DNA from: a virus
Length of the DNA stretch: 40,377 nucleotides
Direction: 5' to 3' (one strand)
Virus record (IMG/VR): IMGVR_UViG_3300006990_000065
Coordinates: 1-40,377 of that record
Shown piece by piece: positions 5,334-26,580 of the stretch. Position 1 is the stretch's first letter. Each line of letters starts with the position of its first letter. Position numbers and translations under genes: made by a program. Below the pieces are notes generated by a model. The model had not been told where the DNA came from. It did no database searches and saw nothing but the letters and a program-made list of their open reading frames with translations.

Positions 5334-5494
5334 TGACACACTACAATATGGGGTTGAATGAAGTGAGGGGGTTGAGTGTAAACGATGCTAAGCAAATGTT
5401 GTATTGGGCACAGGCATCTAATGATGATTCTGAAGCCTCTGCAAGCGCAGTTTACTTGGGCTATGACTCTGTGCCCCCACTGGAGGGGATATGA
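5225..5494 (+). CDS. Tail assembly chaperone, downstream frame (probable frameshift extension)
   Basis: Open frame from 5213 to the TGA at 5492-5494, in the -1 frame relative to the 120-aa ORF. A GTG at 5225 would give 89 aa; ATGs at 5318 and 5333 (the latter overlapping the upstream stop as TGATG) would give 58 and 53 aa. The sequence is helical and charged (VSERLRYQREGMEYLL, NDAKQMLYWAQ) and acidic toward the end. If made by frameshifting from the upstream ORF, the fusion would be about 170-175 aa, similar to GT-type chaperones. The ATG of the next gene overlaps this stop (ATGA at 5491). Frameshift product and reinitiated short protein are both possible; the true start is undecided. Confidence 0.5.
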   Translation: MAAFSGAEVGKIKHFINGRPVSERLRYQREGMEYLLMTHYNMGLNEVRGLSVNDAKQMLYWAQASNDDSEASASAVYLGYDSVPPLEGI

Positions 5495-8483: not shown

Positions 8484-10496
8484 GTGGCACTACCGATTAG
8501 ATTGATTGTTGGCCCTGACAACATAATGGAGATACCATTAGAAGCACAATCGGTAGACATTACAGTAAATCGAAATGCATCTGCATTCCCGACTCCTAAT
8601 AACATCGTAGGTAGGGTCGCAATAGATACTAACATTCCTGAGATAGATATAGAAATATCAGGTATATTCCAAGACGATGATAGTGCTACATTTGACATCG
8701 AAAAGACAACTCCCCAATTTGGAGGGGGAGATATAGTGTTTAACTTTGCATCGGCTTTGCCAACTACTGCCTTTACTCGTACTGGAAGTGAACCAAATTA
8801 TCTAAGAGTAGAGTTTAAAGAAGACTTTGCAATGGATAATCAAGTTACTAACTCTATAGATATTTATAACACTCCTAATAGCCGCAATCCTCTTCCTCCT
8901 GCCGGTATTGCTAGTTCTGACAACCTTGAAACTAGTAATGTAGATGCTGTGTTAAGCACTCTGCGCAGTGGTAGTTCTACTTATGTGGAAAGCACTGTAG
9001 ACCATCCTTCATCAGGTTCTTATTCTGCTGGTAGCACTAGTATTCGCTTAAATACCGTTACGGGTTATAAGGTTTCACAAAGAGTACATTTGACAAACGG
9101 GACATTTGTAGGGACAGTGACTGGTAAAGATGCTTCGGCTAAAACATTACAGTTTTCAGATGGAATAAAAGTTGGCCTGAGTCATGGAAACGATCTTGTT
9201 ACCTTTTCGACTACATTGTATACTGGTGATGGGCGAATAGTAGGTAGCGTAGTTGCAATCCAAGAACTCGATGAGGATGATGATGTCCCTACAACGGTCA
9301 ACAGAATAACACTAGATTCAATCAATGTACCAATTTATGAAGATGTTTACTATTATATGACTGTGTTTAGTAGGCCACCGATTGAGTCTTTTTTGAATAA
9401 CAGGACAATATCTTTGTACCCCAATTTTTGGAGAATGGATAATCATGTTATCAGTTTTTTCGGCACAACACTTTCATCTGAACCATTAGGTGTACATTTA
9501 GAATTTTCAACTGATATGGCCCATGCTGATTATCAAAGTGGCATTAGTGGAGAATACCCTAGTGTCATTGAAAACGGAGAGCACTACCCCGAATATAGTT
9601 CTAGTGGCAGAAGGATTGCAGGCGAAGGCAACCGTGTGAGAATTAAACTACCAATAGGTGGCATAACTACCGATCCTGTTAACGGTAACCCTGCTTCTAC
9701 ACTAGCACTGATTGTTAAAAAGGCACTAGAGTTGACTACCGATGTCATGGATGAGGGGTACATCACTTCTACTAATGGTGAAACATTAGCCAGTGCATTT
9801 GAAGTGGCAGTTAGTGGCCCTATGTTGAAGGTAAAGCAAAAAGACAACCCAATAAAAGAATCTCTTTTGTCAAGCATAGAACCCTGTTTACAACCTGATG
9901 CTTCTGAAAACTTTGAAACTACTAATTCTTTAGAGCCAGCACTGATTGAATTCTTTACTGACAATTATGCTCTAAATGCGGTTAGCGTCAATGCTAAATC
10001 TGCTGGTGACAAAGTACAAGATTTGTTAGGGCTAGTTTCTAATGCTAAGAAAAATAGAGATTTAATTAGAGGTATACAGATACCTTATGATAGCCTTATA
10101 CAAAGTGATGCAGTTACACCGACTGCAAGGAACTTCTTTTTGACTTTTGGTCAACAAGACAACGACGCTAAAGGTTCGTCAGGTAACGCTCTTAGTGCAT
10201 CTAGTAAAATGGTTCCCGGTTTGTTGCCCGGTGATTTGGGCGGAGACACCCCGGAAGGCGACGAAAGTAGTTTCTTTGATAACTTTGGTGATTTTGGTAA
10301 TGCTTTGCAGGCGTTGGGGAGTTTTGTTGGTAACTTTGTTAGTGATACATTTGTAACCTTAACATCAGAACCTCATGGGAATGACGGCGGAATTAGGATT
10401 ATACCTGAAAAGTTTCATGTACACTATGATGCTGGGAACAAATACTACGCTTACAAGTTGATATTGAAGGCATCTGATTTCGTAATAGGGGTGTGA
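8484..10496 (+). CDS. Distal tail/baseplate protein (paralogue B)
   Basis: 670-aa protein with a GTG start at 8484 after TTGAGGGTTT; the nearby ATG at 8482 is out of frame. It is a paralogue of the 852-aa protein upstream. The N-termini share the pattern P-x-RL followed by S-x-D-x-x-V-x-R-x-x-SAF and an I-x-I-x-GIF/VFTDD strand. Near the C-termini both contain KSAGDKVQD, an IQIPYD strand and the ending FHVHxDA...YA/EFxLKx. The middles are unrelated: here there is no LamG domain, but residues about 177-241 carry a copy of the recurrent beta module (VHLTNGTFVGTVTG). The two proteins may build alternating or stacked rings at the tail tip. The last bases overlap the giant gene's start region. No enzymatic motif was seen. 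Confidence 0.65.
   Translation: MALPIRLIVGPDNIMEIPLEAQSVDITVNRNASAFPTPNNIVGRVAIDTNIPEIDIEISGIFQDDDSATFDIEKTTPQFGGGDIVFNFASALPTTAFTRTGSEPNYLRVEFKEDFAMDNQVTNSIDIYNTPNSRNPLPPAGIASSDNLETSNVDAVLSTLRSGSSTYVESTVDHPSSGSYSAGSTSIRLNTVTGYKVSQRVHLTNGTFVGTVTGKDASAKTLQFSDGIKVGLSHGNDLVTFSTTLYTGDGRIVGSVVAIQELDEDDDVPTTVNRITLDSINVPIYEDVYYYMTVFSRPPIESFLNNRTISLYPNFWRMDNHVISFFGTTLSSEPLGVHLEFSTDMAHADYQSGISGEYPSVIENGEHYPEYSSSGRRIAGEGNRVRIKLPIGGITTDPVNGNPASTLALIVKKALELTTDVMDEGYITSTNGETLASAFEVAVSGPMLKVKQKDNPIKESLLSSIEPCLQPDASENFETTNSLEPALIEFFTDNYALNAVSVNAKSAGDKVQDLLGLVSNAKKNRDLIRGIQIPYDSLIQSDAVTPTARNFFLTFGQQDNDAKGSSGNALSASSKMVPGLLPGDLGGDTPEGDESSFFDNFGDFGNALQALGSFVGNFVSDTFVTLTSEPHGNDGGIRIIPEKFHVHYDAGNKYYAYKLILKASDFVIGV
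9013..9207 (+). repeat. Recurrent beta module, copy 2 (in paralogue B)
   Basis: Protein-level repeat, residues about 177-241. The core VHLTNGTFVGTVTGKD and end HGNDLVTF follow the same strand-NG-turn-(L/V)G-strand pattern as the other three copies. This is the most diverged of the four. Confidence 0.45.
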
Positions 10497-10498: not shown

Positions 10499-13400
10499 AT
10501 GACTATACTAATCGAACCCGGATATGCGCTTTCATTCAATGGTATTACTGACGGTGTACTAGTACCTCCTAATCTTAATATGGGGAGTAATAAGGTTGAG
10601 TCGAATAAGGCTTTACCTAATGCTTTGCGCTCATTTACATTAGAGACATGGATAGTTCCTGATTGCGGAGGAATTGTGTTTGAATATGAAAATGTCATGA
10701 GGCTGAGCGTGGGTACGCCTTCAAGCCCTGCCCCTGCGTCTTTTGAAATCAATTTAGAGAATGTAGCGGCTGGGACAAGTAGTGTACAGACCATCAATAG
10801 TGCTAAGCCAGTGCATCGCCCTAATGGTGACTTGGCTTATTGGGACGGTATTTTATTCCCTACTCCTAGTTTAGGTTTACATAATTCTTATGTCTATACT
10901 GACGAAAATAGAAATGACTCTACTGCACTAAACGATGGTCATAGAGAATTATTGAATGTCACGGTTACATTTACTGGTAGGCGTTTGTACATGCACATTA
11001 ATGGTGATTTGTTAGTTTCAAAAGAATTTGAGGAAGATCAACAAGTTGTACTGAATGCTTCTAATATGTACCTTGGTGGTAGAGGAGGTGAGTACAGGGG
11101 CACTATAGAGGCAATTCACTTATCAAGAGGGGTAAAGGCTTCAGGGAGGACATCTTACGCCCCAGTCAAAAGTGATGACACTATTGGGCTTTGGAGATTT
11201 GAAGAGCCGATTGAACCGATCACTACTCAAGTTGTAACCCCTGCTATATCTGCATCGACTAGTACAAGTTCTACTATCAACATAGGTACGGCTGCTGCCA
11301 AGGCATTAGCAAAAGAATTGGCAGGTGACGGATTTACAGACAACATAAACTTTACCACTACTGCCCCTTGGAATTCACAAGGTTCTTACACTGTCAAAAA
11401 ATATGCAGCAACATCAACTAGTGACATTACTATACCCAAAGTACCTTACAACATAATAGTCAATCCTCTTGGTTATAGTTCTACAACTGGTAAGCCTACT
11501 GCTAAAGCCCCTGAGCGTTTGCGCTTAATGGAAATTAGTGGTGGGGCGGGCACGATTACAGTTGAATCAATCCATCTTGATTTTGGCGCTACTTCAAATG
11601 GTAGAAGAGGAGCATTACAGGCTCACGACGCTGGTATATTTGTGATTGTAACTGGAGATTGTATAGTAGACGGTGGTAATGGAAATGTGTATCAGCCACA
11701 AGGAAGCGGTACTCAGTTCTCGCATAGACAGGGACAAGTATGCATAGATGAAAGTGTTCACGAGAATCACGGTATAGTTTTCTCTATGAGTATGTCTATC
11801 GATTCTGACAGTTACAATAAATTTTCAGCATCTTCGGCTAACCCCGGCGATGGATTTTACATAGGTCATTCAGGTAGACATGTGTTAAATCATGTCAAGA
11901 GTCATCCGTTTATGGGTACTTTGCCACCAGCAACAGATTTAGTTGTTGACAAAAAGTTAGATGCATCTGCTGATGTAATATCTGCTTCGTTTTCATCACA
12001 GTATTCTGATATTAAAGGGACGGTACCAGTCAATTCCAAAATATCAACCTATGACTCCCATATTAGTAATCAGATTACAAACTTGTCTTTCAAAACCAAA
12101 GTGAGCCAAGTTGTAGAAAACGGCATGAGTGACATATCAGATTCCCAAAGAAGCATTATCGCTTTAGGTGGTATTCGTTTTGATTCTAGTTTATTTAGTC
12201 TGAAGACAATTGGTGGTAATAAAACTTCTAAAGATTCCACAGAGGCGGCTAGGCACTTAGTGCCTTCTGACGAATCTCGCATTGCCATTTTAAGTCTACC
12301 TTCTCTTTCTACATACAATTATGCTCCATTTATACAGGTGCATTACAATGCAGTTTGTCATAATTTGGCTAATTTCCCAGTTGCCGCTGCTTCTAGGATC
12401 GACTCTTCCTTTACCAGTACATCTACTATAATTAAATTAGAAAGCATCAAGTCTTTTGGTAAAAATGGTGCTGTGTTACCCGCTAGTAGAATTTCTATAG
12501 ATGGTACACCTGCCACAACAAACGGTGCAATAACTGCTACACTGAATCACAGTGATAACAAAATTACATTTAGTGCTGCTACTGATTCTGCATTCCAAGC
12601 AAAAGACACCACAGGTGCAATTGTCAAATTCAAAATGAATGGGCCATCAATAATGGTGACTAAAACCTTACCTGATGTAAGCACCATTGTCACTGGTACT
12701 ACATCAATCCTCGATCTTATTCATACTGCTTTGGCTGACGGTGCTTTAGATATTGTTGCACCGGGTGGTAGAATTGAAATTGATATGCCTGATAACTTTG
12801 CATTTGGCGAAGGTGCTTTGGAAGGTGATACTGAAGAAGGTATAGTTGCAGAACCTAAATTAGACTTTACACTATGTCCTGCCAATTATTTACCATTGGC
12901 TTCGACTGATACCCCTGCTAAGACTCCGCAGAGTATAGCGCTGGCTAATTCTAATTTATCTACTAAGGTTTCTCAGTTTAGTAAGGTCATCATATCTCCA
13001 ACGCACAGTTCTTCTAATTTAGAAGAAGGAGAAGATATGGTCCGCCAGTTACCAATCAATCGCCGAATTAGTACTGGCATACTAATTAACAACAGCGGGG
13101 GCTACAATGCTAGTACTACATCGGCAATGGCTGTTGACGGAGTGGATGCTAGGACTATATTTTCTAACGGCGATACTGTTTACAGGGCTGACGGCAAAGC
13201 ACTCGGCACAATTAGTGCAACAGTGACGGAAAATGCTATAACAATAGGTGGAGGTACAGCGGCTCTTTTACAGGACAATGAAGAGTTGTATAGAACTCCT
13301 ATAACATTAGGTCAGGGTACTACTAATCATTCTACTGCCGTGCATGAAGTCTTTGACATCATTGAACACCAAGTATTAGGTAAAAAGGTTGTCTTGACTG

Positions 13401-16400
13401 TACAACCTAGTGACCGTAGGCGCTTTTCGCAACTGGCAAAACTCAGGTCAAATGCCTCTATGCCTAATTCCATATCCATCGAATACTTAGTTTCAAGAGG
13501 CAGAGTCTTATCATTTGATGATGATGTTAATGGTAATTCCAACTTATTAGCCTATGGACTTGTATCTGATATAGCAAGTGCAAGTGTCAGCGCCAAAGGT
13601 GATGGTGCTCCTGATTCTCACATTGTAAAGGAAATAATGCCGGGTGCACCTGTAGTTACAGTTACATTGGGTGGTCCCGGCCAAGGTGCAATCAATACTA
13701 AGGAAACATGGGATCCAAGTCCTACTGCTAGAATGGCTTGGAGTACTAGGCGTGACTGTGTTACGAACGGAACTGAGTATGATGTAAGTGCAAGGACAAT
13801 TACAGTCGTTCCTCTTAAAAACAACGCAACTGACTTAGGCTCTTGGGGCACATATTGCTTCCCTAAAGTTGGCAGAATATATATTGAACTGGCGAGAACA
13901 GATGTAAATGAAGGGATTAGTTTTGCTTCAGCAGAATACAGTTCAAAGACGGGTACTGTATTCAACTTTGCATCAGGTTCTCATCGAGGTACTGGTAAGT
14001 TTTTACTAGCAGATGGAAGCGAAGCAGATACTTTTTCTGAATGGGTTAGTGAAGTTGGAGCCGCAAACATAGTTGGTGGTAACATACATGTCGATGACAA
14101 GTTCCTTGAAGAATCGATGTGCAACGATGGTACTACAATCAACGACAGATTATTCCAAACACTTGATACTGTACAGCACGATTATCAATTGGGTACACAG
14201 TACGCAAGCACTCGTGCTATGGTAGAGATTCCTTTGTTTGATAACCAGTTCTTTAGTAATGAAGATAGAGGTATATTTGTTGGACCTGACAACAGCATGA
14301 AGATACATGTTGATGCTACTCACACTGCAAGCAACTGGGCACCAAACCCTGTCGGTAGAAGACACGAAGAGATAGCCCCTCAAGACCCTGAAGTATTTGG
14401 GGCATTTTCTTACAGCATATCTAGCAATAGCCACAGGTCGGGTACTAAGATTACTAAGCCTTTCACTGGTGCTACAATTTCCGTAGAAGATGCAAGCATA
14501 TTCCCTATACCTGATGCTGCCCCTGTCACCGTTGCCGGTGTTGACGGTAGCGCAAGGTATCGTAGAGCATTCTTGCCGAGCGGAGAATGGGTACTGTATA
14601 CTGCTAGACATGAAGGTAATAACACAATCACAGCAGCCGCAGCAGCAACTGCTGGTGGTAACTGGGCAATGAGCAAGAACTTTGTCAAGGAGTTTGCAGT
14701 CGGCGTACAACTCACTCCGGGTCCGGGCTACCAAGATATGAACTACACCTCTATTGCAGACAACCCCTTACTCAAGAGTGCTGGATATGAAGGTCGTCGA
14801 TCTTTCTATTATGACCGTTCCAATGTGATGACTCAAGGTGGCAATGTTGACTATGGTATGAAGCAGTATGTCAGCGCAGTTGAGTTCAGAGCAGGGCCTC
14901 GTGTTAACCCTCACCTTGACAGAATCCAAAGTGGCAGGGCTAAAGGAATAGTAGAATCTTTGAATACAGGTCTAAACATATTATACTTAAAAGATGGAAG
15001 CGCTTTTCCTGAAAACAGAGAAGGAGTAAATGGGTATGCTGGTTATCGCTACAGGCTGGCTTGGAGAAATGCAAGTGGTACCCTTACATATGCGCACTAC
15101 GAAGCAAGAGCAGGTACTATATTCGCACTATCGCAGAGAGACTCCGGCTTCACACCGTCAGCAGGTGATGAGGTAACGCTTGTTGATATGCATGCAAGCC
15201 CTAGTACAATTTACCCTGAAGTAAAAGAAGGCGTTTTCCTAAATAAGAACTGGGCCAACCCTTATGCTCCGGGTGGTTTGCGTGACGGTGACACTGTTTG
15301 GATGAACATGCACTACACTAACCCTCATTCAATAGAAGGTTTATTCGCTAAGAGTAGAGGTACGCTCAATGAAGGTCAAGTTTGGACTGGGTTTAATGGT
15401 GGAGAAGGGGCGATGAATGCAAACCCAAGAAGCAGTACACCTTTGGAAAACTTCTTGATAGGTAATACCTGTACTGAAACTGCCAAAAACTTCGTGCAAC
15501 ATGTTAACAAAACTATTGAATTGAATTACGAAGCCCTTGGTTTATCAGCAACTTTAGCACCTACTGTTGCATATCTAGATCCGTACCAGTCATCTGATGA
15601 ACATTCTCGTGTGTTGCTATACGATGTAGCGCATGACCGTGAGTTTATTGCATTCCAAGACTTGTGGATGCAAGTACAAAGCAGTGCAGATGCCATCAAG
15701 ATAGGTGCGGCCCCTACTACAACAGCAGGCGCTATTCTGCATAGCGATGCAAATTCAGGCTCATCGCTAGATGTAGCATCAGGTTTCCCAAGCCAAAGCA
15801 AATACCTTGCAGTATCTGCACAGTCTCAGTTTATGGAAGCGGCCTATTCGCACAAAAGCACATGGAATGCTAGTACTGGTACTATTTTGTCGCCGCATTC
15901 TCCTGATGTAGGTTCTAGTTATACCACTAATAACGGCATGCCTAGAACCAATGACGCAGTAATCAACTCTGCAGATTCGCTATTACTTCATCAGCAAATC
16001 GACAAGGATTCAAGAGAAGCGTCTACTTTCTTTGATACTCCTGACGGTACTCGTGCTATACCTGCATTCCTTGCACTGAAGGGAATTAGAAACGATACAC
16101 TTGATTTAATAAGCCATGAAGAAACCCGACTACGGCATTTAGACCACTGGACAAAGATGGACTTCGTAAGAAGGTTAACCGTGGACTTTGGAGAAGTAGC
16201 ACTTAGAGATGGTGTTACTAACATAGAGTCAGCCGCCCGTGAAGTTGTCCGCTTAATCAATCAGGCCGGTGCTAAGAACGGCAGAACTTACACAAAAGAA
16301 TCAGATGACCCTCATCTTGGTGCTAGTACTGGCTCAACTCACGATCCTGCACCGTTTTGGGATGTTGAGAAATCTTTCTCTAGTCATGATAGAGGTACGC

Positions 16401-19400
16401 ACATGGGGTATGTTCGTGCTCACCTCGGTAGAGTTGTGCAAGACTCTGATGGAAATTCAGGCTATTCAATAGTAATACATTCTACTGTACCGGGTGCTGA
16501 AGGTCGTAACTTCTGTACTTGGTTAGATAGTAGTCGTGCACAGACTCCTTATCGTCCTCAGTATCTTATTGGTCATGGCGGAAGATTCCGTAACTATTGG
16601 TGTCAACCTGACGAAATGACTGGGGAGAACATGCACCCTGCTCCTATGCCAATCAATCGATTTGGTAGACCATTTGCTCCAATCACTACTCTCAAAGAGT
16701 TCTTGCCTCCTGAAGAAACACTAGATTCGTTTGAAAACAATCTAAGCCTTGGGCCTGAAACCGTTGCAAGTTCTACTCAGAAAACAGATGCATTTAGAGA
16801 AAGCGCATCGGGTAGAAACAGTAACACCGTAATCGATGAGTCGTTTGAAACAAAAAGTCCATCTTCTACATTAGTCGATGGTTTGAGGACTGGTACCTCT
16901 GCAAAGGCACGAATTAACTTTGGTGGCATGACTCAGGCTGGAATACCGGGCTGGGCACCTAATGCTGGTAAGTGGGGTATAGGTAGAGATGGAGACTCTA
17001 AATTTGAAGCAATTTATGGTAATGCATCTAATGCTGCTACTGCTACGCTAGGCGGCACAGCATATTCTGATAGCAATAAAACAGGCTACATCCCTGAAGC
17101 AGATATGAAGCCATCTAACATAGGTGATGGTAACCTCTATGGAATTAAGTTAGTCGATCATCGTGGTGACAGCCATACAGTAAGAATGGTTTACAAGCAG
17201 TATGGTAAGTCGTTTGCAAACGATTTGACAATGGCTCCCCCTACAATTGATGAGGAAGTCATTATTCACTTTGATGACAGAGATGTAGCGCAAGGTGGAT
17301 TCACAATTGGTAAGCATATGGTTGGCACAGGTGAAGTATGTGGCGAAAAGAGTGGAGGTACTGCTGAGCCATACAAAGGTAACCTTTGGAATAACTACCC
17401 TTCACCTGCTGTAGGAATACATGTAACTGGTAACAAGGCCACTGATACCGGAGTAACTATGGATGTAACTTTCACTGCGCCTTACAGTACAGGAGACACG
17501 CTAACCCACCCTGATGTACTAGGTTATCTCGGATTCCCTGAGTCGGGCGTATTGCAATTGACAGATGATGCAGGCACTAGTGGTGACCAAGGGATTACTA
17601 TTCATTACACCAGCCGATCTCATTACGACCACGATGGTGATACTGGTGCATCTAACAAGCACTACTTCTATGGTTGCACAGGTGGTCGTGCACTAACTAC
17701 TAACGAAGGTATGTTAATTAGTCCAAGAATCAACTTCACAAGCGTACTCACTGACGAAGTGATTGCAGCGGCAGTTGAGTTCGCTATGACAATGCCTGAC
17801 CCTAGTGACGACAGCATATCAGCAACAAGTTTCGATTGCACAGGTATGTTTGCACCTGATGGTAAAACATTAGGCGAATGGGGAGTTAGCCCTACTGCTA
17901 TACGAGTTAAGGCCAGTAGTAAAAACAAGGTACCTCTTAGTAAGTTGTTTGAAGTTTCAAGAAGTAAGGATTGGGGATTGGTCGAAGGTGCAAGTAGTGA
18001 CGCTGTAGTATCAAGTAAACACACTGGTGGATTAAGCGATGCTGAAAGAGATGCGGGTGTACGCCTAGATGTAGGTTATATTCCTGAAACTCTTTTACAC
18101 ATTACTACTCGTTACAAGGGTACTAATGCAAACACTGCTACTCCCATTCTAGTTGATAATCAGAATAACCCTGTTGATATATCGATATGGCAAAGAAACC
18201 TTCGTGGAGATAACTACACAGGCGTAGCGGGCGACCACATTATACCAAAGGTAGACAGCCCTATGATTTTGAAAACCACTGATGATGGTACTCTAATAAC
18301 AACCGCAAGTAACACTTACTTGTATTCAATATGTGTACCGGGTTCAGACCATGCACAGGCTTGGGGCGAGCGGTTTACAATTTGGTGGGGTTCAGAAGAA
18401 TACGCAGAGGTTGCCAGTACGCCCGGAACAGCAGTTGAAACCAAACTTACTTACGGAGCGGCTACAGGTGTTAGTACTAACTTTGCTTCTTTCTGCCATG
18501 ACAGTGATGATGAAGTCCTCATGCGCAATGGCGATGTCAAGAATGGCATGAAAACAGATGGTATTCGTAGGGCTGGAAGCAAGATGTCCAGCCCTTTCCT
18601 CTACTTTAGAGGAGGCAGAGACAGCCCTGACCACTGGGTGCCACTTTACTTCGGTGGTGGGTTCAGTGGTGTAGTTATGGATGTTAACGACGGTACTCAA
18701 AACGATTACGGTGATTTCTATACACATCCTTACGCAGGTGGGCCAACCGGATCTGCTGGTCTACAAAACATAGGCGAAGTTGCTGGCGCTTACGCACTTC
18801 TTGATACGAATGCAATGCTGGCTATGTTCCCCGGTACACCTTATTTGGATAACCACAGGGGTAAAAATAACCCGCCTATGTTTAACCAAGATGGTATTTT
18901 ACCTTTCGATATGGCTAAGGGTGCAAACAATCACGCTACTGGTACAACATATACAGATGGTACAAATACAGTATCAACAAACATACCGAGTCCAATTATA
19001 CTTCGATTTGGTCATCCTCACGCTAGGTATAGCGCTGCTGGAAACACTGCTGACCAAACTATCTACATGGTGTTTGGTCCCGGCCAAGCCTTCCCTCACA
19101 ACAGTGCTACCTTTGAACCCCAAGGGTCGAATATAGTGACTACAGGTAATGGCTACAGCGCTGTCCCAATTTATACAACAAGTACCTCCCCGTCATTCTT
19201 ACCTAATCAATTAACCAACGGTGACGATTTTGTTAGTGGTTTCAATAGAACTTTGGCTGCATCTGCTCACTTACCAAGGACCAGTTTCTTTCAAAAGAAT
19301 AGACTAAGTGCATTCAATTACGATATGAATTGGGAACCAACAAAGGGATTCCCAAGTGTCGCTGCTCATACTAGTAGTGGTGATTCATTTGCGCAAGGGT

Positions 19401-22400
19401 ACAACAAAGCATTTTATTACGAAGGTTCTGACTTTACTATAGGTAGTTTAACTCTGCCTCCTACGGCACATCCATTTAACCATGTATTTACTAACTTGGC
19501 TGGTGGTGCATTAGAGAGTGCAACATATCCCGCAAGTAAAAAGGCGTTTGCAATTTGGCACATGGATGGAGGCTATCATCCCGGTGGGCACTTCCTTGAT
19601 AATCATGTCAATATCAATCCAAAGCACCCAGTAGAGAATGGTAGGTTAGCCACAGGTAGCGCTAATAAACACAATGTATCTGCATTCAGGCCTTGTGGAC
19701 TTTTGGCTAAAGCATATTTGGCTAAATATGATACTGATGGCGATCCTGAAGACCAAGTAAGTGACGAAAATGTTGTACTGATAGACGCTACTCGTGTACA
19801 GAACGCAGAGGAGTTAGGGGCAGTTATCAGTGCATCTATCAACACATTCCCCGGTAAAGACCCGCTCAAAGCAATAGGTGGTACATTTTTACCGTCTATG
19901 CAGAACGCTCACAAGCAAGACAGATACGGTTGGGTAGAATTAGCCGTAGCATCTTACACTGCTCAGAACGGCCTCGACCCAGCCAGTGCAACTGCTGCGT
20001 CATTAGTGGCAACTAGTACTTCTACGACATTACCACCTTATGGTTGGTTAAGAGTAAGTGATGGTACAACTTCCGGTTACGCACCTTATGTTGGTTATTC
20101 TGTTAGTGCTCCTAATACTACCTTTACACTTGGTAAAGGTCCGGCTGCGACCACACCAAAGAGTGTAACAGTCCAAGGAGGAACTAGTGGAACTAGTGGC
20201 TATTCTGCAGCATCCGGTTTGGCTACGACTGGTGGTTCAGGTACTGGGTTAACTATACAAATAACAAGTGTAAATGGCTCAGGTCAAGTTACAGGTGCGA
20301 CAATAACCGCTTCCGGTTCAGGTTATAACAGTGGCGAGGTAGTTGTTATTCAACAAGGTGGCTCTTCAAATGATGCTAGGTTAGAACTAGTCCTTGATGC
20401 CTCTTCAAATGTCATTGACCCTACAAATAATAGGCATGTTGCTGTAACTAACAGTTTCAAAGTATATGTTTGGACTAAGGCAGGTACTCATCGTCATAAT
20501 AACGACAGTGGTGTAACTGATCGTGACCACATGACACAAGTACACTATAACGGTTTAATCGATGCAGTAGATCGAACTAAGCCTATTGGTGCAGTAGGAT
20601 GGGCTGGAGAAGCCTATTCTTACATGAATTCGTATACAGGTACTCAAGTTGGTTCAGGCGTTTATCCCGCTGGCTTAGGTGCTTGGCACCCATTCCTTGG
20701 CTTCAATCCATACGGGGCAGCAGAGACCTGCTTAGCAGCGTCAGCGCCTGTCGGTACAGGAGATACTGCTACTGCAACATTCTCTGATTACTGTGTAAAT
20801 GGCTTATCATCAAGGCACTTGATTGCTATTACTAATGAAAGTGAATTACCATTAATTGCAAAGGCCGACAGGGACGGTATTCTCTGTTCAGGTGATTGGT
20901 TGATGGCTAAAGAAAACGGCAACATATTACATGCTGGTACAACCCAGTGGGACACTGATAAAGTTCACAATAAATCAAGATATGTGGCTTACGCTAACGC
21001 TGGTCCTCGTGTAGAAGCACAGGTACACAGCGATTTCGTAAGACCATTTGACGCAAGTGATTACCCTGCAACAAATGCAGTGCCCGCTGATAACAAATGG
21101 CATGCTACAATAGCATCCGGCAAAATGGTACAACTCAATTCATGTTTGCATCCGACTGGTGATTTGTATTGGGATGAAAGCATAGTCAAAGGTTCTAACT
21201 TCCACGAAGATTTCGCAACTTACGGTGTAGAGTGTATTGGTAATAGTGGTTTGTTGGATTATCTTAATCCGGGCGCTGCTACTACTGCTATGCCTCATCC
21301 CGGTTTGTTTGGATATTACGATAAGCGATCTGCTGCTCGTAACTTTAGTGCAGAGCATGTTGTTTGGAAGCGTATGGATGGTGGTAGCCTAACTATGCCA
21401 GCGGCCAATGCTAGAGGCCTTGGGGCTATACCTTGGGTTCAGCGAAAAGTAGGGGAAGAGAGATATGAGTTAGTTGGCGAGAAAATACTTGGTAATGTTA
21501 GATTTAGTTTTGAATCTACTAATTCTGCTATGTTCCCAGTTATACAGGCTCAAGAATTAGCCCACCCTCAGTTGGCAGAACAGCACCCTAAGAAGATAAG
21601 AAACGCACTAATGATACCAAATGAAGAATTGCAATTCCAAAGCATGATGGTGGTAGATGATACTGGGCAGGAACATCGCTTAGAAGGCGGTTCGCCATTA
21701 GGTACTGTCATCATGGACTTCAGACATGTAAGTGACAGGGAGATAGAAGGTTTAGCACCTGCCTTAGCAGGTACTGGTATTTCACCTAATATGAAAATCC
21801 GTTTACCTAATCCTGATGAAATACCGGGCAATATCATAATAAGGCCCGGCTTTGATAGAATACAAGCGTATCAGAATGAAACATTTGGTTCAGGTGGTTT
21901 GCAGCACCCTGCTCAAGGAGAAGAGGGTGGCTTTGTCAGAAACCTGTTTGATAATCAAAGTCCCGGTCCTAGATTATGGCCTACATGGGAAAATAATGGT
22001 TGGGAGCATCTAAGTCAAGATAGAACAGATGTTTCAACTACTAAGCACAGGCATCGATTAGGTTTCCCGGCATCAACATCAGAGGGTTGGGAAGATTATA
22101 CTGGTCATAAACCACTTACCACGGCTTACGAGCCACACGATCGCAGCCTTTATTTCCATGTAACCAAGATGAGCACAAGTATGACTTACAGGTATGGTGA
22201 GTCACAAGAGCGAACATACCTTAGTGTAGATGGAACCAACTTGATAACACAATCACCTGAAGACATAAGTTCTTCTGTCTATACGGACCCTAGTGAACTT
22301 AGTGGGGGTAGATACTTTTTGAGACTATACAATCAAGAAACTGGTAAAGGAGTAATTGTTTCATACACGGGTATAGATAACAGTAGCAGTGCCAAAAAGT

Positions 22401-25400
22401 TTACAGGTGTAGTGTACGGTCCTGATTTTGAAACATTTATACAAGAAAATTCTTTCCACCAAGTCAACATAACACCTAGTTATTACATGCCAGCAGGTAG
22501 TACTCGTATATACGCATCGAGAAGGTTGCGTGACCACAGTGAATATAGTGGTGCTAGCCCTGATATGAAGATTACAGATTGGTTTGAAATATATGACAAA
22601 CTGCCTGCAAGTAGCGGTAGTTTCACAAACCCATCGATTCCTTACATACATCTTGCAGGGACTTCAAGCCCTAAGATGACACCTATGCCTATACCTCGTA
22701 TGGGTCACCACTATGTTAACCCAACAATGGCATTGATGCCGGGCCATTATGCTCATCCAGCATATCAGCGCCTGTACGAGTTAAACCAAAGTTGTAGAAC
22801 TTCTAACAATGCACCTGCTATCAATAGTCTGATTGGTACTAATGAAGGGACTAGAACGAGCACAACCGCTACTTCGACTACGCATGAGCCGGGTCGAGAC
22901 CCTTACATTTACTTCTCCGGCCCAACTGCTGCATTCGCTCCTTCTGACATCCACGGTGGAGGTTTCACTCTATTGACTGAAACTAAAATCAAGTACGAAG
23001 GATATGGTGTCGCTGCATCCGTTGGTGATGCAGGTAGTAAGAATGCAGCCGGTGGTCACGAGTTGGTACTAGAGGCTGCTGGAACATATACTCTCAACAA
23101 TCACTTCCCCGATCCAATGGAAGTGGGCGCATACCAAATTGTAATACAACCGAATGTATTTGCACAACAAATCAAAGGTTTCCATCTTAACCACGGTACT
23201 GAAAACAAAGCGCCATCTGAAAGTGGAGACAAAGTAGTGGAGTTGACTGGGCAACAGGTCAACACTGTCATTGCTATCGAGCAAGACATCAGTACAAATG
23301 GTGCACATACACTCATATTAGCAGAGGCTATAATGGCTGATGTTAGGGGTTGTGAAATAATTATCAATGAGGTCATTCTTGATATTGAGCCTGATTCCGG
23401 TAGCCACTTCGCCAACATGCCTGCACTCGGCCTCTATAACCCACTTGGTGTACAAGAGTCTAGTTCTCCTTCACTGAGTCGTAGAAGTCTACCTTACAAG
23501 CCGGGTATGTTCTCTAGTGCAACGCCGGGATATACAGTCACAATACCTTGGTGGGGGATATTGCACAAAGATGGTGCTGGGGATTCTGCTGCTCAGAAGT
23601 TTAGACATTTAGAGTGGCACAAGCCTGACAATTATTACGAATTCTGTAGAATGTCTTACGGCTGCGTAGGTGCCCAATTGACTATCGCTGGCTACCCTAC
23701 TTCCTTTATGGATATTTATGAGGCGCACAGGCGCAATAGAAGTCTAAACCCTACCTGTGTTGTACTTGCAACTGATAGCAGCGGCTCTACAATCACAGTC
23801 GATAATAACGACTTATTCCCTGTAGCCCCATATTACGGGGAAAAGTTAGAGTACACTAAAAGCGGTAAACGCTATACTGCAACCTATGGTAATAGGACTG
23901 GGACACTTGCTCATGCTACATTAGGGGTATCTACTATATTTTCAAGCGTAAGTGGTAGCGCAGAGTTTTGGGCTAACATTGCTGCTGACACAGTGCTGAA
24001 ATTAACTAGACCTTATGATACATATGCATCTGATTCTGTGTTCTTAGATACTAAGAGTAGTATAATGACAAGACTACTACCTCAAAGGAGGAAGGTAGGA
24101 GAAGAAAGCATCTACACATCTATAGCAAACGGAACTGCTGACACAAATTCACTACATCTACCCGACGCTTACCTATGTATGTGGCACCCTAATCTAGGTA
24201 GACCGTTTACTTGGTACAGCGACACCGCTACAGGTGGAACTCGCAACTTCTATGACAAGACTGGAGTAGCAGATACGCCTGTTGATAAGAAACCTTACAA
24301 CCATATACCTGAGCACTTTGAGACTATACATTATCATGATTTCAATTATGTTGCAAGCAAGGGGCCATTTGGACTAGCGATGAAATGGCTGAGTCCACCG
24401 GGCAGTGCTGGCCTATCAGCAGACGGTACAATTTACACAGCGGCACAGATCGATAGTGATGGCAACTTGTCTCACCAAGGTGGTACAGATAGTTCAGAGA
24501 AGTATAACTTTGCAGGCTTTTGGCCCGGAGGCTCTCATGGAGGCGGGGCAATAAGTCGCCTAGAAGCCTACGGAGATGCACTGATTGGATGGGGTGGTGA
24601 AACTCATGGAATGGATTGTGGTGGGTTTGATGACAATACTGGAGTTAGGACTAGGACATACGCACAATTGACATCTGCTTCTGCTTATGCTCGCAACAAT
24701 TGCTTTGGGTTTAGATTTGGATTAAGGCAGGCTTACAATAGGCCACGCTGGGCTAACTATGTTAGAGGTTGGTTAGAAGTTGCCAACGCTAATGCTTTGC
24801 TTGGTTATTACAATGGTCCTCTTGTACAGCAAGATGATAAAGCCGGTGGCTGGGACTATGTAGGGACAGACACAGGGACAATAGGTGATTCATCAATAAG
24901 TGATACTTACATTGGTATTTTAGAAAGACTGACTCAGGTTAGTGCACTTCTAAACCAAGACCAAATTGGTCGTCAAGTGCGATACAGTGATGGTCGTAGA
25001 ATGTCAGAGCCATTCGGCTGTGCAGTAAGGACAATTAGGAACGCATCTACAGTTAGAAGAGAATATCCGGGCGATAATGCTGGTAAGGGTATATCCGAAT
25101 TAGCCGATGCGCACAGATATTACATGGTAGATTGGTGGGGCAATACTCGTGGAGAAGATGTACGCAGGTTCCCAGTTAGAGGGTTTGGAATTAGACCTTC
25201 TTGGGATCCTGAAGATGCATATGCGGACACTAATGTTGCTCATAGGCCTGCTGCCGGTGCTTTGTTTGGTGGAGATGGCAATGACCGTTACAGTGGCAAC
25301 GCTAATACCGCTAACAATGACGCTAGCAACATGGGCGTGGCTGATTGGTTTAACCCTGCTAGTGCACTTAGAGTCGGAGACAGAGGTGATGGCAGAGGAG

Positions 25401-26578
25401 TGCGCTGGCCCACTGTGTTTAACGAAAGCATGCTCATGGATGTCAGCGAAACGCACGATGCTACTGGATTAGTGCTGTCTCATAGCACAGCAGAGCCAGC
25501 CTTTGGTCAAGGACTAGTGAGGCCTAGTAACTTAACTTTACAGTCGGGTGAAATAGAGAGAGGAATAAGCGCTAGGTTAGACTTGGCAGACGAAGATGGT
25601 TTGCTCAAACCTAGTGCTTCTGTAGGTGAAGGTGTAGAGACCGTAACCGCTGATACAAGGCTAGTTGACCCAGTTGCTAGAGATGATATGAGAATGGGAC
25701 TAGATGTGGACACTATTGCTGAACTAAACGATGGTGTTAGCAGAGAATATGTCATCATGTCTACTGAAGCAGCCAGCCTACACACTGACAGAGAAGTAGG
25801 GCAGAGGACAAACTTACGAGGGGCCATGACAGGCGCAAGTCGTACTTTAGGTAACTTCGATTTGACCGCTCTAAACTTCAGTACTAATCCGGTTGCGGGA
25901 ATTACAAGATTCTCCAACGCTCACGCTTATTGGCCGCTTGGTGGAACTTACATCATGGAATGGAGTAGGTATTCAGGCGTATTAGATGTCAAAGGCTGGG
26001 GTCAAACTGGTGTATCTTCTACATCTAATCCGTACCAAGATGCTAACCACGACCCAATCATTCAAAATACTAACTTTACAGATTCCACTATCGAATTCCT
26101 GTACCGCCCAGTACAGGTATTAGACAGTAAACATGTTCAGTTCTTTAGACCAGCACCTGTAATGAAAACTAGTGCTGACCAAGTTGGCTCTAACTTCTAT
26201 AGAGCGACAAGTGGCGGTAAATATGGCCTATTCACAAGCGATGCTCCGGGTGCACTGACAGGGACTCCGAGTAGCCCACCATATGCGCCAGTTTACTCAA
26301 TTACACCTACTTCTAGTACAACAGTACCTACAAGTCAGGGGCCTAAGATTGAGGGTGTCGATGTAACAGGATATGACAAGACTGACATCCGATCTCCAGT
26401 AGCAAGAGTAGTCATGTCTGAGAACACACTTGAGCACTTTAGAGCAGATGCAAGTCGCAAGTCTCCTGATGATGAAGAAGGCGATTTCACTGTACAGCCG
26501 AGGCACAGTCAGACCCTACATCCAAAGGGTAGCGATGGTGATGCAACTTATAATACAGGAGACCATAGCGGGGAGTGA
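10499..26578 (+). CDS. Giant virion protein (about 5,359 aa), probable tail adhesin/fibre
   Basis: A single uninterrupted frame of 16.1 kb. A GTG at 10493 is possible, but GGGGTG at 10488-10493 sits 5 nt before the ATG at 10499, which I prefer. Residues about 8-240 form a LamG-like domain (ALSFNGITDGVLVPP, TFTGRRLYMHINGDLL, DDTIGLWRFEE). Residues about 270-420 look beta-helical (Gly/Asn turns with short hydrophobic strands). Residues 858-931 are a copy of the recurrent beta module. Residues about 3225-3291 are a Gly/Ser-rich GSGTGLTIQITS...ASGSGYNSGEVV module common in marine phage fibres. The remainder is beta-dominated, rich in Gly, Thr, Ser, Asn and aromatics, with almost no long helices or coiled coils, so it does not look like a tape measure. 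No catalytic motif, signal peptide or membrane segment was found. Lying between distal-tail and hub genes, it is most likely an exposed host-binding structure of over 500 kDa. Function is inferred. Confidence 0.8.
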   Translation: MTILIEPGYALSFNGITDGVLVPPNLNMGSNKVESNKALPNALRSFTLETWIVPDCGGIVFEYENVMRLSVGTPSSPAPASFEINLENVAAGTSSVQTINSAKPVHRPNGDLAYWDGILFPTPSLGLHNSYVYTDENRNDSTALNDGHRELLNVTVTFTGRRLYMHINGDLLVSKEFEEDQQVVLNASNMYLGGRGGEYRGTIEAIHLSRGVKASGRTSYAPVKSDDTIGLWRFEEPIEPITTQVVTPAISASTSTSSTINIGTAAAKALAKELAGDGFTDNINFTTTAPWNSQGSYTVKKYAATSTSDITIPKVPYNIIVNPLGYSSTTGKPTAKAPERLRLMEISGGAGTITVESIHLDFGATSNGRRGALQAHDAGIFVIVTGDCIVDGGNGNVYQPQGSGTQFSHRQGQVCIDESVHENHGIVFSMSMSIDSDSYNKFSASSANPGDGFYIGHSGRHVLNHVKSHPFMGTLPPATDLVVDKKLDASADVISASFSSQYSDIKGTVPVNSKISTYDSHISNQITNLSFKTKVSQVVENGMSDISDSQRSIIALGGIRFDSSLFSLKTIGGNKTSKDSTEAARHLVPSDESRIAILSLPSLSTYNYAPFIQVHYNAVCHNLANFPVAAASRIDSSFTSTSTIIKLESIKSFGKNGAVLPASRISIDGTPATTNGAITATLNHSDNKITFSAATDSAFQAKDTTGAIVKFKMNGPSIMVTKTLPDVSTIVTGTTSILDLIHTALADGALDIVAPGGRIEIDMPDNFAFGEGALEGDTEEGIVAEPKLDFTLCPANYLPLASTDTPAKTPQSIALANSNLSTKVSQFSKVIISPTHSSSNLEEGEDMVRQLPINRRISTGILINNSGGYNASTTSAMAVDGVDARTIFSNGDTVYRADGKALGTISATVTENAITIGGGTAALLQDNEELYRTPITLGQGTTNHSTAVHEVFDIIEHQVLGKKVVLTVQPSDRRRFSQLAKLRSNASMPNSISIEYLVSRGRVLSFDDDVNGNSNLLAYGLVSDIASASVSAKGDGAPDSHIVKEIMPGAPVVTVTLGGPGQGAINTKETWDPSPTARMAWSTRRDCVTNGTEYDVSARTITVVPLKNNATDLGSWGTYCFPKVGRIYIELARTDVNEGISFASAEYSSKTGTVFNFASGSHRGTGKFLLADGSEADTFSEWVSEVGAANIVGGNIHVDDKFLEESMCNDGTTINDRLFQTLDTVQHDYQLGTQYASTRAMVEIPLFDNQFFSNEDRGIFVGPDNSMKIHVDATHTASNWAPNPVGRRHEEIAPQDPEVFGAFSYSISSNSHRSGTKITKPFTGATISVEDASIFPIPDAAPVTVAGVDGSARYRRAFLPSGEWVLYTARHEGNNTITAAAAATAGGNWAMSKNFVKEFAVGVQLTPGPGYQDMNYTSIADNPLLKSAGYEGRRSFYYDRSNVMTQGGNVDYGMKQYVSAVEFRAGPRVNPHLDRIQSGRAKGIVESLNTGLNILYLKDGSAFPENREGVNGYAGYRYRLAWRNASGTLTYAHYEARAGTIFALSQRDSGFTPSAGDEVTLVDMHASPSTIYPEVKEGVFLNKNWANPYAPGGLRDGDTVWMNMHYTNPHSIEGLFAKSRGTLNEGQVWTGFNGGEGAMNANPRSSTPLENFLIGNTCTETAKNFVQHVNKTIELNYEALGLSATLAPTVAYLDPYQSSDEHSRVLLYDVAHDREFIAFQDLWMQVQSSADAIKIGAAPTTTAGAILHSDANSGSSLDVASGFPSQSKYLAVSAQSQFMEAAYSHKSTWNASTGTILSPHSPDVGSSYTTNNGMPRTNDAVINSADSLLLHQQIDKDSREASTFFDTPDGTRAIPAFLALKGIRNDTLDLISHEETRLRHLDHWTKMDFVRRLTVDFGEVALRDGVTNIESAAREVVRLINQAGAKNGRTYTKESDDPHLGASTGSTHDPAPFWDVEKSFSSHDRGTHMGYVRAHLGRVVQDSDGNSGYSIVIHSTVPGAEGRNFCTWLDSSRAQTPYRPQYLIGHGGRFRNYWCQPDEMTGENMHPAPMPINRFGRPFAPITTLKEFLPPEETLDSFENNLSLGPETVASSTQKTDAFRESASGRNSNTVIDESFETKSPSSTLVDGLRTGTSAKARINFGGMTQAGIPGWAPNAGKWGIGRDGDSKFEAIYGNASNAATATLGGTAYSDSNKTGYIPEADMKPSNIGDGNLYGIKLVDHRGDSHTVRMVYKQYGKSFANDLTMAPPTIDEEVIIHFDDRDVAQGGFTIGKHMVGTGEVCGEKSGGTAEPYKGNLWNNYPSPAVGIHVTGNKATDTGVTMDVTFTAPYSTGDTLTHPDVLGYLGFPESGVLQLTDDAGTSGDQGITIHYTSRSHYDHDGDTGASNKHYFYGCTGGRALTTNEGMLISPRINFTSVLTDEVIAAAVEFAMTMPDPSDDSISATSFDCTGMFAPDGKTLGEWGVSPTAIRVKASSKNKVPLSKLFEVSRSKDWGLVEGASSDAVVSSKHTGGLSDAERDAGVRLDVGYIPETLLHITTRYKGTNANTATPILVDNQNNPVDISIWQRNLRGDNYTGVAGDHIIPKVDSPMILKTTDDGTLITTASNTYLYSICVPGSDHAQAWGERFTIWWGSEEYAEVASTPGTAVETKLTYGAATGVSTNFASFCHDSDDEVLMRNGDVKNGMKTDGIRRAGSKMSSPFLYFRGGRDSPDHWVPLYFGGGFSGVVMDVNDGTQNDYGDFYTHPYAGGPTGSAGLQNIGEVAGAYALLDTNAMLAMFPGTPYLDNHRGKNNPPMFNQDGILPFDMAKGANNHATGTTYTDGTNTVSTNIPSPIILRFGHPHARYSAAGNTADQTIYMVFGPGQAFPHNSATFEPQGSNIVTTGNGYSAVPIYTTSTSPSFLPNQLTNGDDFVSGFNRTLAASAHLPRTSFFQKNRLSAFNYDMNWEPTKGFPSVAAHTSSGDSFAQGYNKAFYYEGSDFTIGSLTLPPTAHPFNHVFTNLAGGALESATYPASKKAFAIWHMDGGYHPGGHFLDNHVNINPKHPVENGRLATGSANKHNVSAFRPCGLLAKAYLAKYDTDGDPEDQVSDENVVLIDATRVQNAEELGAVISASINTFPGKDPLKAIGGTFLPSMQNAHKQDRYGWVELAVASYTAQNGLDPASATAASLVATSTSTTLPPYGWLRVSDGTTSGYAPYVGYSVSAPNTTFTLGKGPAATTPKSVTVQGGTSGTSGYSAASGLATTGGSGTGLTIQITSVNGSGQVTGATITASGSGYNSGEVVVIQQGGSSNDARLELVLDASSNVIDPTNNRHVAVTNSFKVYVWTKAGTHRHNNDSGVTDRDHMTQVHYNGLIDAVDRTKPIGAVGWAGEAYSYMNSYTGTQVGSGVYPAGLGAWHPFLGFNPYGAAETCLAASAPVGTGDTATATFSDYCVNGLSSRHLIAITNESELPLIAKADRDGILCSGDWLMAKENGNILHAGTTQWDTDKVHNKSRYVAYANAGPRVEAQVHSDFVRPFDASDYPATNAVPADNKWHATIASGKMVQLNSCLHPTGDLYWDESIVKGSNFHEDFATYGVECIGNSGLLDYLNPGAATTAMPHPGLFGYYDKRSAARNFSAEHVVWKRMDGGSLTMPAANARGLGAIPWVQRKVGEERYELVGEKILGNVRFSFESTNSAMFPVIQAQELAHPQLAEQHPKKIRNALMIPNEELQFQSMMVVDDTGQEHRLEGGSPLGTVIMDFRHVSDREIEGLAPALAGTGISPNMKIRLPNPDEIPGNIIIRPGFDRIQAYQNETFGSGGLQHPAQGEEGGFVRNLFDNQSPGPRLWPTWENNGWEHLSQDRTDVSTTKHRHRLGFPASTSEGWEDYTGHKPLTTAYEPHDRSLYFHVTKMSTSMTYRYGESQERTYLSVDGTNLITQSPEDISSSVYTDPSELSGGRYFLRLYNQETGKGVIVSYTGIDNSSSAKKFTGVVYGPDFETFIQENSFHQVNITPSYYMPAGSTRIYASRRLRDHSEYSGASPDMKITDWFEIYDKLPASSGSFTNPSIPYIHLAGTSSPKMTPMPIPRMGHHYVNPTMALMPGHYAHPAYQRLYELNQSCRTSNNAPAINSLIGTNEGTRTSTTATSTTHEPGRDPYIYFSGPTAAFAPSDIHGGGFTLLTETKIKYEGYGVAASVGDAGSKNAAGGHELVLEAAGTYTLNNHFPDPMEVGAYQIVIQPNVFAQQIKGFHLNHGTENKAPSESGDKVVELTGQQVNTVIAIEQDISTNGAHTLILAEAIMADVRGCEIIINEVILDIEPDSGSHFANMPALGLYNPLGVQESSSPSLSRRSLPYKPGMFSSATPGYTVTIPWWGILHKDGAGDSAAQKFRHLEWHKPDNYYEFCRMSYGCVGAQLTIAGYPTSFMDIYEAHRRNRSLNPTCVVLATDSSGSTITVDNNDLFPVAPYYGEKLEYTKSGKRYTATYGNRTGTLAHATLGVSTIFSSVSGSAEFWANIAADTVLKLTRPYDTYASDSVFLDTKSSIMTRLLPQRRKVGEESIYTSIANGTADTNSLHLPDAYLCMWHPNLGRPFTWYSDTATGGTRNFYDKTGVADTPVDKKPYNHIPEHFETIHYHDFNYVASKGPFGLAMKWLSPPGSAGLSADGTIYTAAQIDSDGNLSHQGGTDSSEKYNFAGFWPGGSHGGGAISRLEAYGDALIGWGGETHGMDCGGFDDNTGVRTRTYAQLTSASAYARNNCFGFRFGLRQAYNRPRWANYVRGWLEVANANALLGYYNGPLVQQDDKAGGWDYVGTDTGTIGDSSISDTYIGILERLTQVSALLNQDQIGRQVRYSDGRRMSEPFGCAVRTIRNASTVRREYPGDNAGKGISELADAHRYYMVDWWGNTRGEDVRRFPVRGFGIRPSWDPEDAYADTNVAHRPAAGALFGGDGNDRYSGNANTANNDASNMGVADWFNPASALRVGDRGDGRGVRWPTVFNESMLMDVSETHDATGLVLSHSTAEPAFGQGLVRPSNLTLQSGEIERGISARLDLADEDGLLKPSASVGEGVETVTADTRLVDPVARDDMRMGLDVDTIAELNDGVSREYVIMSTEAASLHTDREVGQRTNLRGAMTGASRTLGNFDLTALNFSTNPVAGITRFSNAHAYWPLGGTYIMEWSRYSGVLDVKGWGQTGVSSTSNPYQDANHDPIIQNTNFTDSTIEFLYRPVQVLDSKHVQFFRPAPVMKTSADQVGSNFYRATSGGKYGLFTSDAPGALTGTPSSPPYAPVYSITPTSSTTVPTSQGPKIEGVDVTGYDKTDIRSPVARVVMSENTLEHFRADASRKSPDDEEGDFTVQPRHSQTLHPKGSDGDATYNTGDHSGE
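10520..11215 (+). other. N-terminal LamG-like domain of the giant protein
   Basis: Residues about 8-240 show the LamG order: LSFNGITDGVLVPP, FTLETWIVP, then LNVTVTFTGRRLYMHINGDL, MYLGGRGGEYRGTIEAIHLS and the closing IGLWRFEE. It is the second LamG-type domain in the operon, but its motifs differ from the one in paralogue A, so it is unlikely to be a recent copy. Confidence 0.65.
13070..13291 (+). repeat. Recurrent beta module, copy 3 (in giant protein)
   Basis: Residues about 858-931, starting STGILINNSGGY, core GDTVYRADGKALGTISA, ending DNEELYR. It is closest to the copy at 27934-28173, which begins STGILINNGGGY and ends NNEELF; the DNA also resembles that copy over the first 25 bases or so. 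Confidence 0.7.
20171..20365 (+). repeat. Gly/Ser-rich GSGTG-type module inside the giant protein
   Basis: Residues about 3225-3291. It opens with a short tandem duplication (two copies of GGAACTAGT at the DNA level, giving GTSGTSG) and continues GSGTGLTIQITSVNGSGQ, then ITASGSGYNSGEVVVI. The GTG-x-V/I...GSGY-x-x-G-(D/E)-x-(V/L) pattern is widespread in tail-fibre and structural proteins of marine tailed phages, where it occurs as a stand-alone repeat; here only one copy was noticed. Confidence 0.5.
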
Positions 26579-26580
26579 AC

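What the first reader, a model, noticed from the sequence alone, without database searches (positions are those of the whole stretch)
10499..26578. A 16.1-kb single gene for a ~5,360-aa virion protein in an archaeal-type virus
Seen: one uninterrupted frame covering 40% of the window, between distal-tail and hub genes, beginning with a LamG-like domain and otherwise beta-rich with no long coiled coil. Known: genes of this size are rare in tailed viruses and usually encode tape measures, giant adhesins or polyvalent proteins; the composition here argues against a tape measure. Inference: an exceptionally large host-attachment structure, perhaps a mosaic of many small beta domains used against planktonic archaeal surface glycans. 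Keeping 5,000+ codons intact implies strong selection.
Basis: partly seen in the sequence, partly recalled or inferred. Interest (0 to 1): 0.85.

Follow-up and report, generated by a model that had tools for sequence, protein, structure and literature searches.

The report
Giant conserved tail protein of magroviruses
Viruses thought to infect the abundant ocean archaea Poseidoniales carry one enormous (about 5,360-amino-acid), well-conserved tail gene, probably the body of their host-attachment machine, into which different virus lineages have slotted extra small domains, some of them sugar-binding in type.

Summary
One uninterrupted frame (ATG 10499 to stop 26578, 5,359 aa, 577 kDa) lies in a magrovirus (Poseidoniales tailed virus) fragment. 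It is no assembly artefact: same-virus contigs from three other metagenomes agree without indels, and orthologues of 5,100-5,980 aa occur across magroviruses (pN/pS about 0.16).

The protein sits in the tail module, is beta-rich, and starts with a LamG domain. It is not the tape measure: that is the separate 140-aa gene at 5491-5913, whose relatives include canonical 405-609-aa tape measures and whose length does not track that of the giant. It is also not simply a mosaic of small domains. It is a largely unique scaffold conserved end to end, about as well as the tail tube and slightly below DNA polymerase. Lineage-specific modules of 60-320 aa (LamG/ConA, propeller-like, GSGY, VYN and others) are inserted at about 15 sites; some recur in other tail genes. 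A small barrel present three times most resembles one in lambda gpJ (Z 8.2, borderline).

Best reading: a giant tail-tip/baseplate scaffold carrying exchangeable attachment modules. Position and binding are inferred. AlphaFold failed on most of the scaffold. Cyanophages have a comparably large tail gene (4,482 aa), so this is a new variant of a known kind.

The parts
10499..26578 (+). Giant tail scaffold protein, 5,359 aa, 577 kDa (reading frame open from GTG 10493)
   Evidence: ATG at 10499 is the start conserved in orthologues
10499..11218 (+). N-terminal LamG/ConA-like domain (aa 1-240)
   Evidence: Laminin_G_3 in 14 of 19 orthologues, best 2.9e-11; conserved in all clades aligned
13073..13291 (+). 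VYN module (aa ~859-931), also found in hub, 670-aa protein, adaptor and tube
14444..14671 (+). Small beta-barrel copy 1 (aa ~1316-1391)
14942..15175 (+). Small beta-barrel copy 2 (aa ~1482-1559)
   Evidence: HMM; hhalign to copy 3, E 4e-6; AF2 model best VIA hit lambda gpJ 490-567, Z 8.2
20183..20386 (+). GSGY module (aa ~3229-3296); absent at this site in more distant orthologues, present at other sites in other lineages
   Evidence: HMM E 8.7e-22; PHROG 460 E 1.9e-5; region gapped in 99% of more distant orthologues
23750..23995 (+). Small beta-barrel copy 3 (aa ~4418-4499)
   Evidence: HMM E 1.8e-33; VIA best hit lambda gpJ 489-566, Z 8.2
24398..24406 (+). Site (aa ~4634) where several other magroviruses carry a 315-332-aa propeller-like insert; empty here
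26000..26015 (+). Site (aa ~5168-5172) where many lineages carry a ~230-255-aa ConA/LamG insert; empty here
5491..5913 (+). Tape measure protein, reduced to 140 aa in this clade
   Evidence: same slot and C-terminal motif as 405-609-aa canonical tape measures of other clades
5916..8474 (+). 852-aa tail protein, paralogous to the next gene; carries a ConA/LamG module at 6417-7100
   Evidence: hhalign 852 vs 670: 100%, E 1.5e-41; PF13385 E 9.9e-6; module HMM E 2.6e-70
8484..10496 (+). 670-aa tail protein, the fastest-evolving tail gene tested (pN/pS 0.39)
2777..4774 (+). Tail tube protein
   Evidence: PF18906 Phage_tube_2 E 4.1e-6
4784..5333 (+). Two small overlapping ORFs (69 and 120 aa), position of tail assembly chaperones
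   Evidence: synteny between tube and tape measure in all loci checked; function inferred from position
26575..28266 (+). 563-aa baseplate-hub-like protein with a VYN module at 27937-28176
   Evidence: module HMM; hub role inferred from gpD/gp27-like sequence motifs and position, no significant family match
28268..29823 (+). 118-aa and 400-aa downstream tail/fibre-like proteins
   Evidence: syntenic and conserved; function inferred from position
384..2324 (+). Head-tail adaptor-like protein with a VYN module at 1470-1667
   Evidence: phrog_17057 E 2.7e-23, function unknown; module HMM; role inferred from position

Best explanation
The gene encodes a giant structural scaffold of the tail tip or baseplate of magroviruses. 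[quoted passage not shown] It displays a LamG domain at its N terminus and lineage-specific beta modules (ConA/LamG, propeller-like, GSGY, VYN and others) in loops. The modules supply or tune attachment to the host surface, while the scaffold itself is under the constraint of a core machine part. Shown: intact frame, conservation, purifying selection, tail-module position, separate tape measure, module insertion and dispersal. Inferred: location in the virion, oligomeric state, glycan binding.
For: Fixed gene order tube, chaperone-like pair, tape measure, 852, 670, giant, hub, fibre. Scaffold identity follows PolB and tube (e.g. 30109_3187: giant 64.5, PolB 67, tube 60, hub 47, 852 35, 670 32%). 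pN/pS about 0.16 against 0.09 for tube and 0.39 for the 670-aa gene; it rises to 0.25 at aa 3151-3600, where the GSGY module lies. LamG start. Small barrels whose best VIA match, for two copies in independent models, is lambda tail-tip gpJ (Z 8.2, rmsd 2.8, about 77 residues). Modules dispersed over many giant sites and other tail genes. Length 5,100-5,980 aa irrespective of tape-measure length (r = -0.19, n = 17).
Against: No proteomic or structural data. AF2 failed on most of the two fragments folded (mean pLDDT 39 and 47.5), so the scaffold fold is unknown. Z 8.2 is borderline, and F1-ATPase and EF-Tu barrels score 6-7 in the same lists. The hub and adaptor assignments rest on position and motifs. 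Identity of the giant and of other genes was computed by different methods (MAFFT columns against tblastn segments).
Confidence: 0.6

Rival explanations
1. A giant receptor-binding tail fibre or adhesin whose whole length projects and decides host range.
For: LamG start, ConA-like and propeller-like inserts, beta-rich composition, and a cyanophage gene of 4,482 aa annotated as short tail fibre. It could overlap with the best explanation.
Against: The scaffold is much more conserved than the fibre, 852 and 670 proteins and follows PolB and tube; no long repeats; low pN/pS nearly throughout.
Confidence: 0.22
2. A tape measure protein.
For: Size, and nearness to the tail genes.
Against: A separate tape-measure homologue fills the canonical slot; the giant is beta-rich and its length does not covary with it.
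Confidence: 0.01
3. An internal or ejected polyvalent protein, or a polyprotein cleaved into several products.
For: The size class is typical of polyvalent proteins (general knowledge); most of the scaffold has no known fold.
Against: No enzymatic domain in Pfam or PHROG scans; LamG and GSGY-type modules, which are typical of virion exteriors, are inserted along its length. Cleavage could not be tested.
Confidence: 0.1
4. Assembly fusion or another artefact.
For: None found beyond two split contigs and one 10-N gap.
Against: Identical frame in assemblies from other metagenomes with no indels, and many orthologues.
Confidence: 0.01

Closest known systems
Magroviruses (order Magrovirales: Aoguangviridae, Apasviridae)
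   Same: PolB, primase, ERCC4-type nuclease and PD-(D/E)XK genes, chaperonin, non-contractile-type tail module, convergent structural and replication clusters (PMC10768690, PMC12999244).
   Different: None of the openly held magrovirus papers searched describes this gene as a giant conserved scaffold; some profiles only mention a tail fibre or baseplate. A UniProt entry, A0A1B1IU10, is an unnamed relative (38% identity).
Very large virion proteins of marine cyanophages (S-RSM4 SRSM4_214, 13,449 bp; PHROG 701, 6,136-position profile)
   Same: Tail-region gene of 4-6 thousand residues; the GSGY-type module is shared with cyanophage virion proteins.
   Different: No scaffold similarity found.
Phage lambda tail-tip protein gpJ
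   Same: A ~77-residue small barrel in two giant copies aligns best to gpJ 489-567.
   Different: gpJ is about five times smaller; no other similarity found; the Z-score is borderline.
HFTV1 baseplate hub and fibres (archaeal siphovirus, PMC12494034)
   Same: Archaeal tailed virus with trimeric baseplate parts and predicted carbohydrate-binding domains used in attachment.
   Different: HFTV1 spreads this over several smaller proteins and has a 341-aa tape measure with a 56-nm tail.
Promiscuous Ig-like and carbohydrate-binding insertions in phage structural proteins (from general knowledge)
   Same: Small beta domains inserted, present or absent, in different structural genes.
   Different: Here one giant scaffold is the main acceptor, with about 15 sites and at least six module families.

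Membership tests
Magrovirales | Family B DNA polymerase related to haloviruses and magrovirus contigs | tested here: met
   PF00136 E 3.7e-34; best named relatives are halovirus PolBs at 24-26%; 76 viral loci at 61-100%
Magrovirales | Replication genes and morphogenesis genes in two oppositely transcribed clusters, with chaperonin | tested here: met
Magrovirales | Host is Poseidoniales | not tested
   taken from the literature (PMC5332604, PMC10768690)
Tape measure protein | Helical protein encoded between tube and distal tail genes, length scaling with tail | tested here: not met
   giant is beta-rich; slot occupied by a separate tape measure; lengths uncorrelated
LamG/ConA-like domain at N terminus | Significant profile match | tested here: met
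   14 of 19 orthologues, best 2.9e-11; the window copy alone is below threshold
gpJ-type tail-tip proteins | Overall gpJ hub architecture | tested here: inconclusive
   only one ~77-residue barrel aligns, Z 8.2
Tail fibre / receptor-binding protein | Hypervariability relative to core genes | tested here: not met
   scaffold identity follows PolB and tube; overall dN/dS 0.06 with saturated dS
Tail fibre / receptor-binding protein | Binding of host surface | not testable with these tools
   needs experiment
Polyvalent/internal ejected protein | Enzymatic domains | tested here: inconclusive
   none detected by Pfam or PHROGs; most of the scaffold has no known fold

The most novel reading that the evidence does not exclude
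In the window's clade the tape measure has shrunk to 140-170 aa, which predicts a very short tail (about 20 nm or less), while a 577-kDa tip protein is kept. The giant assembly may itself form the long reach or conduit to the host membrane, a tail architecture not yet described.
Probability: 0.13. Interest if true: 0.78.

Novelty: new variant of a known kind. Interest (0 to 1): 0.52.

Why it matters
[quoted passage not shown] This gene takes up about 16-17% of a ~100-kb genome, is as conserved as core genes, and carries exchangeable modules of sugar-binding type. That makes it the leading candidate for the attachment machine, and the insertion sites give a natural map of which parts are exposed. 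The short tape measure makes tail length in these viruses a direct, testable prediction.

Tried and rejected
Megablast and tblastn of the giant against INPHARED phages: no match; the collection seems to lack magroviruses, since PolB found only haloviruses and other phages. Hub, tape measure and tube tblastn: no match. A consensus GSGY peptide of my own making gave nothing and is not used. hhalign of the N terminus against the ConA module was not significant (prob 1.2); the LamG call rests. Internal repeats: only the small barrel. AF2 models were mostly low confidence; Foldseek PDB gave nothing at E <= 0.001. PDB sequence hits to sodium/calcium exchanger 1 over aa 131-248 were judged a weak beta-sandwich or compositional match. 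PDB profile searches for hub, tape measure and 670-aa alignments gave no credible hit. Genome scan found only two magrovirus-like contigs inside bacterial MAGs. Papers on magroviruses by Philosof 2017 and Prabhu 2025 are not held, so prior mention of the gene there cannot be excluded.

Full report
WHAT IS THERE. The frame at 10493-26578 (+) is open for 5,361 codons. The start conserved in orthologues is the ATG at 10499, giving 5,359 aa and 577 kDa. The window is a magrovirus fragment: tube protein PF18906, thermosome-type chaperonin, family B polymerase, ERCC4 nuclease, primase large subunit and PD-(D/E)XK nuclease. The named phage PolB relatives of highest identity and coverage are haloviruses, and 76 viral-contig loci carry PolB at 61-100% identity. 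Magroviruses are known only from metagenomics and are linked to Poseidoniales (PMC5332604, PMC10768690, PMC12999244). I did not test the host link.

IT IS REAL. Contigs of the same virus from three other metagenomes (3300006735, 3300006737, 3300030376) match the window over 13-23 kb with 1-16 mismatches and no gaps. Full orthologues stitched from overlapping loci or fetched whole are single frames of 5,100-5,980 aa. Among 196 loci with part of the gene only three contigs show a split, one of them at ten N. At least 324 IMG/VR stretches encode relatives of the central region. All nine PolB-bearing contigs of at least 90 kb also yielded the giant. Against a relative at 82.5% identity, pN is 0.112 and pS 0.706; dS is saturated, so only the low ratio matters.

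IT IS NOT THE TAPE MEASURE. Between tube and 852-aa gene lie two small overlapping ORFs and a 140-aa protein in every locus checked. In other clades the same slot holds 405-609-aa proteins with hydrophobic helices and/or the motif GEAGPEAVIPL, typical of tape measures (general knowledge), or, in one case, a repeated coiled segment. Their C-terminal motif (VGGVTDRTDKRALAKEI) is shared with the 140-aa protein (IDVSGVTDRSDKKALAKEI), and a search with the 140-aa protein finds them at E 1e-6 to 1e-8 through that part only. So the 140-aa protein is a tape measure reduced to its C-terminal part and a short helix. At about 0.15 nm per residue (general rule) the clade would have a tail of about 20 nm or less. 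HFTV1, with 341 aa, has a 56-nm tail (PMC12494034). The giant's length does not follow the tape measure (r = -0.19, n = 17).

ANATOMY. (1) A LamG/ConA-like N-terminal domain: 14 of 19 orthologues match Laminin_G_3. (2) A scaffold with no family match and no internal repeats beyond one small barrel, conserved end to end: 80-82% to near relatives, 57-65% to the main group, 41-44% to the most distant. (3) Three copies of a small beta-barrel; for two copies in independent models the best aligned solved structure is lambda gpJ 489-567, Z 8.2, rmsd 2.8, about 77 residues. Other small barrels score 6-7, so this is suggestive only. (4) Removable modules. In the window these are VYN (13073-13291) and GSGY (20183-20386). 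In other lineages, inserts of 45-330 aa sit near aa 910, 1161, 1482-1534, 1684, 2297-2315, 2587-2671, 2976, 3213-3225, 3580-3649, 4113-4116, 4359, 4575, 4633-4715, 4799-4925, 5168-5172 and 5268. The ConA/LamG insert is always at 5168-5172 and the propeller-like one near 4634; GSGY occurs at about a dozen sites. The same families turn up in the hub (VYN 52 distinct sequences), the 670-aa protein (28), adaptor and tube, and ConA in the 852-aa protein (29). GSGY is also present in cyanophage virion proteins. Some of the larger gaps (e.g. 2,018 and 1,583 aa) are alignment breaks, not inserts, and were ignored.

SURROUNDINGS AND CONSTRAINT. Gene order tube, two small ORFs, tape measure, 852, 670, giant, hub, 118, 400-aa fibre is constant where visible. 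The 852 and 670 proteins are paralogues. Identity of the giant follows PolB and tube and exceeds that of hub, fibre, 852 and 670. pN/pS for one pair: tube 0.09, giant about 0.16, tape measure 0.13, 852 0.24, 670 0.39. A host-range adhesin would be expected to be the variable gene; here the variable genes are 670 and 852, and within the giant the modules.

MECHANISM. The best reading is a tail-tip or baseplate scaffold. Likely steps: the scaffold oligomerises between tube-end proteins and hub (inferred); the LamG domain and lineage-specific modules are displayed outward (inferred from their insertion without loss of the frame); they bind surface glycans or glycoproteins reversibly (inferred from domain type); the hub then triggers DNA release (general knowledge of tailed viruses). 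The shown steps are the frame, conservation, position, separate tape measure and module dispersal.

LIMITS. Two AlphaFold jobs (aa 1050-2240 and 4161-5359, 39 and 50 sequences) gave mean pLDDT 47.5 and 39, so most of the scaffold has no fold assignment; the N-terminal 1,050 aa and aa 2241-4160 were not folded. The failure may reflect an obligate oligomer or a shallow alignment. Hub, adaptor and fibre names rest on motifs and position. Papers that first described magroviruses in detail were not available.

NOVELTY. Giant virion proteins and promiscuous beta modules are both known kinds; S-RSM4 has a 13,449-bp tail-fibre gene. What appears new is a universal, core-conserved scaffold of this size in an archaeal virus order, acting as the main acceptor of modules and paired in one clade with a minimal tape measure.

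Noticed in passing
window 5491-5913; G001/G005/G021-G024 same slot: Tape measure varies from 140 to 609 aa across magroviruses; the short forms keep only the C-terminal motif and a short helix, predicting very short tails in the window's clade.
   Followed up: yes
window 1470-1667, 8997-9197, 13073-13291, 27937-28176: The same ~70-80-aa VYN module sits in four different structural genes of this one virus (the 670-aa copy is weak, E 0.0013).
   Followed up: partly
window 5916-10496: The 852- and 670-aa genes are adjacent paralogues and the fastest-evolving tail genes tested (670: pN/pS 0.39); they may hold the true host-range determinants.
   Followed up: partly
window 1-347 and L282: C-terminal end of a long Pro/Ala- and Gln-rich, partly helical protein upstream of the adaptor; an 858-aa counterpart occurs in G015. 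Function unknown.
   Followed up: no
window 30068-31567 (-): Virus-encoded thermosome-type chaperonin convergent with the tail module; it might help fold the giant protein (speculation).
   Followed up: no
L196 (PAUP01000059.1), L197 (NZMJ01000142.1): Magrovirus giant-gene contigs sit in MAGs labelled Cytophagaceae and Maricaulis, most likely binning contamination.
   Followed up: no
G007 (103,328 bp) 141-608 and 102824-103291: The tape-measure gene is found at both ends of the contig, suggesting terminal overlap and a complete genome.
   Followed up: no
G004 (3300046171_000110) and 3300000973_000860: The giant gene is split into separate frames in these two contigs; natural break or sequencing error not resolved.
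   Followed up: no
window 32275-33678 (-): 467-aa protein in the replication cluster with no Pfam match.
   Followed up: no
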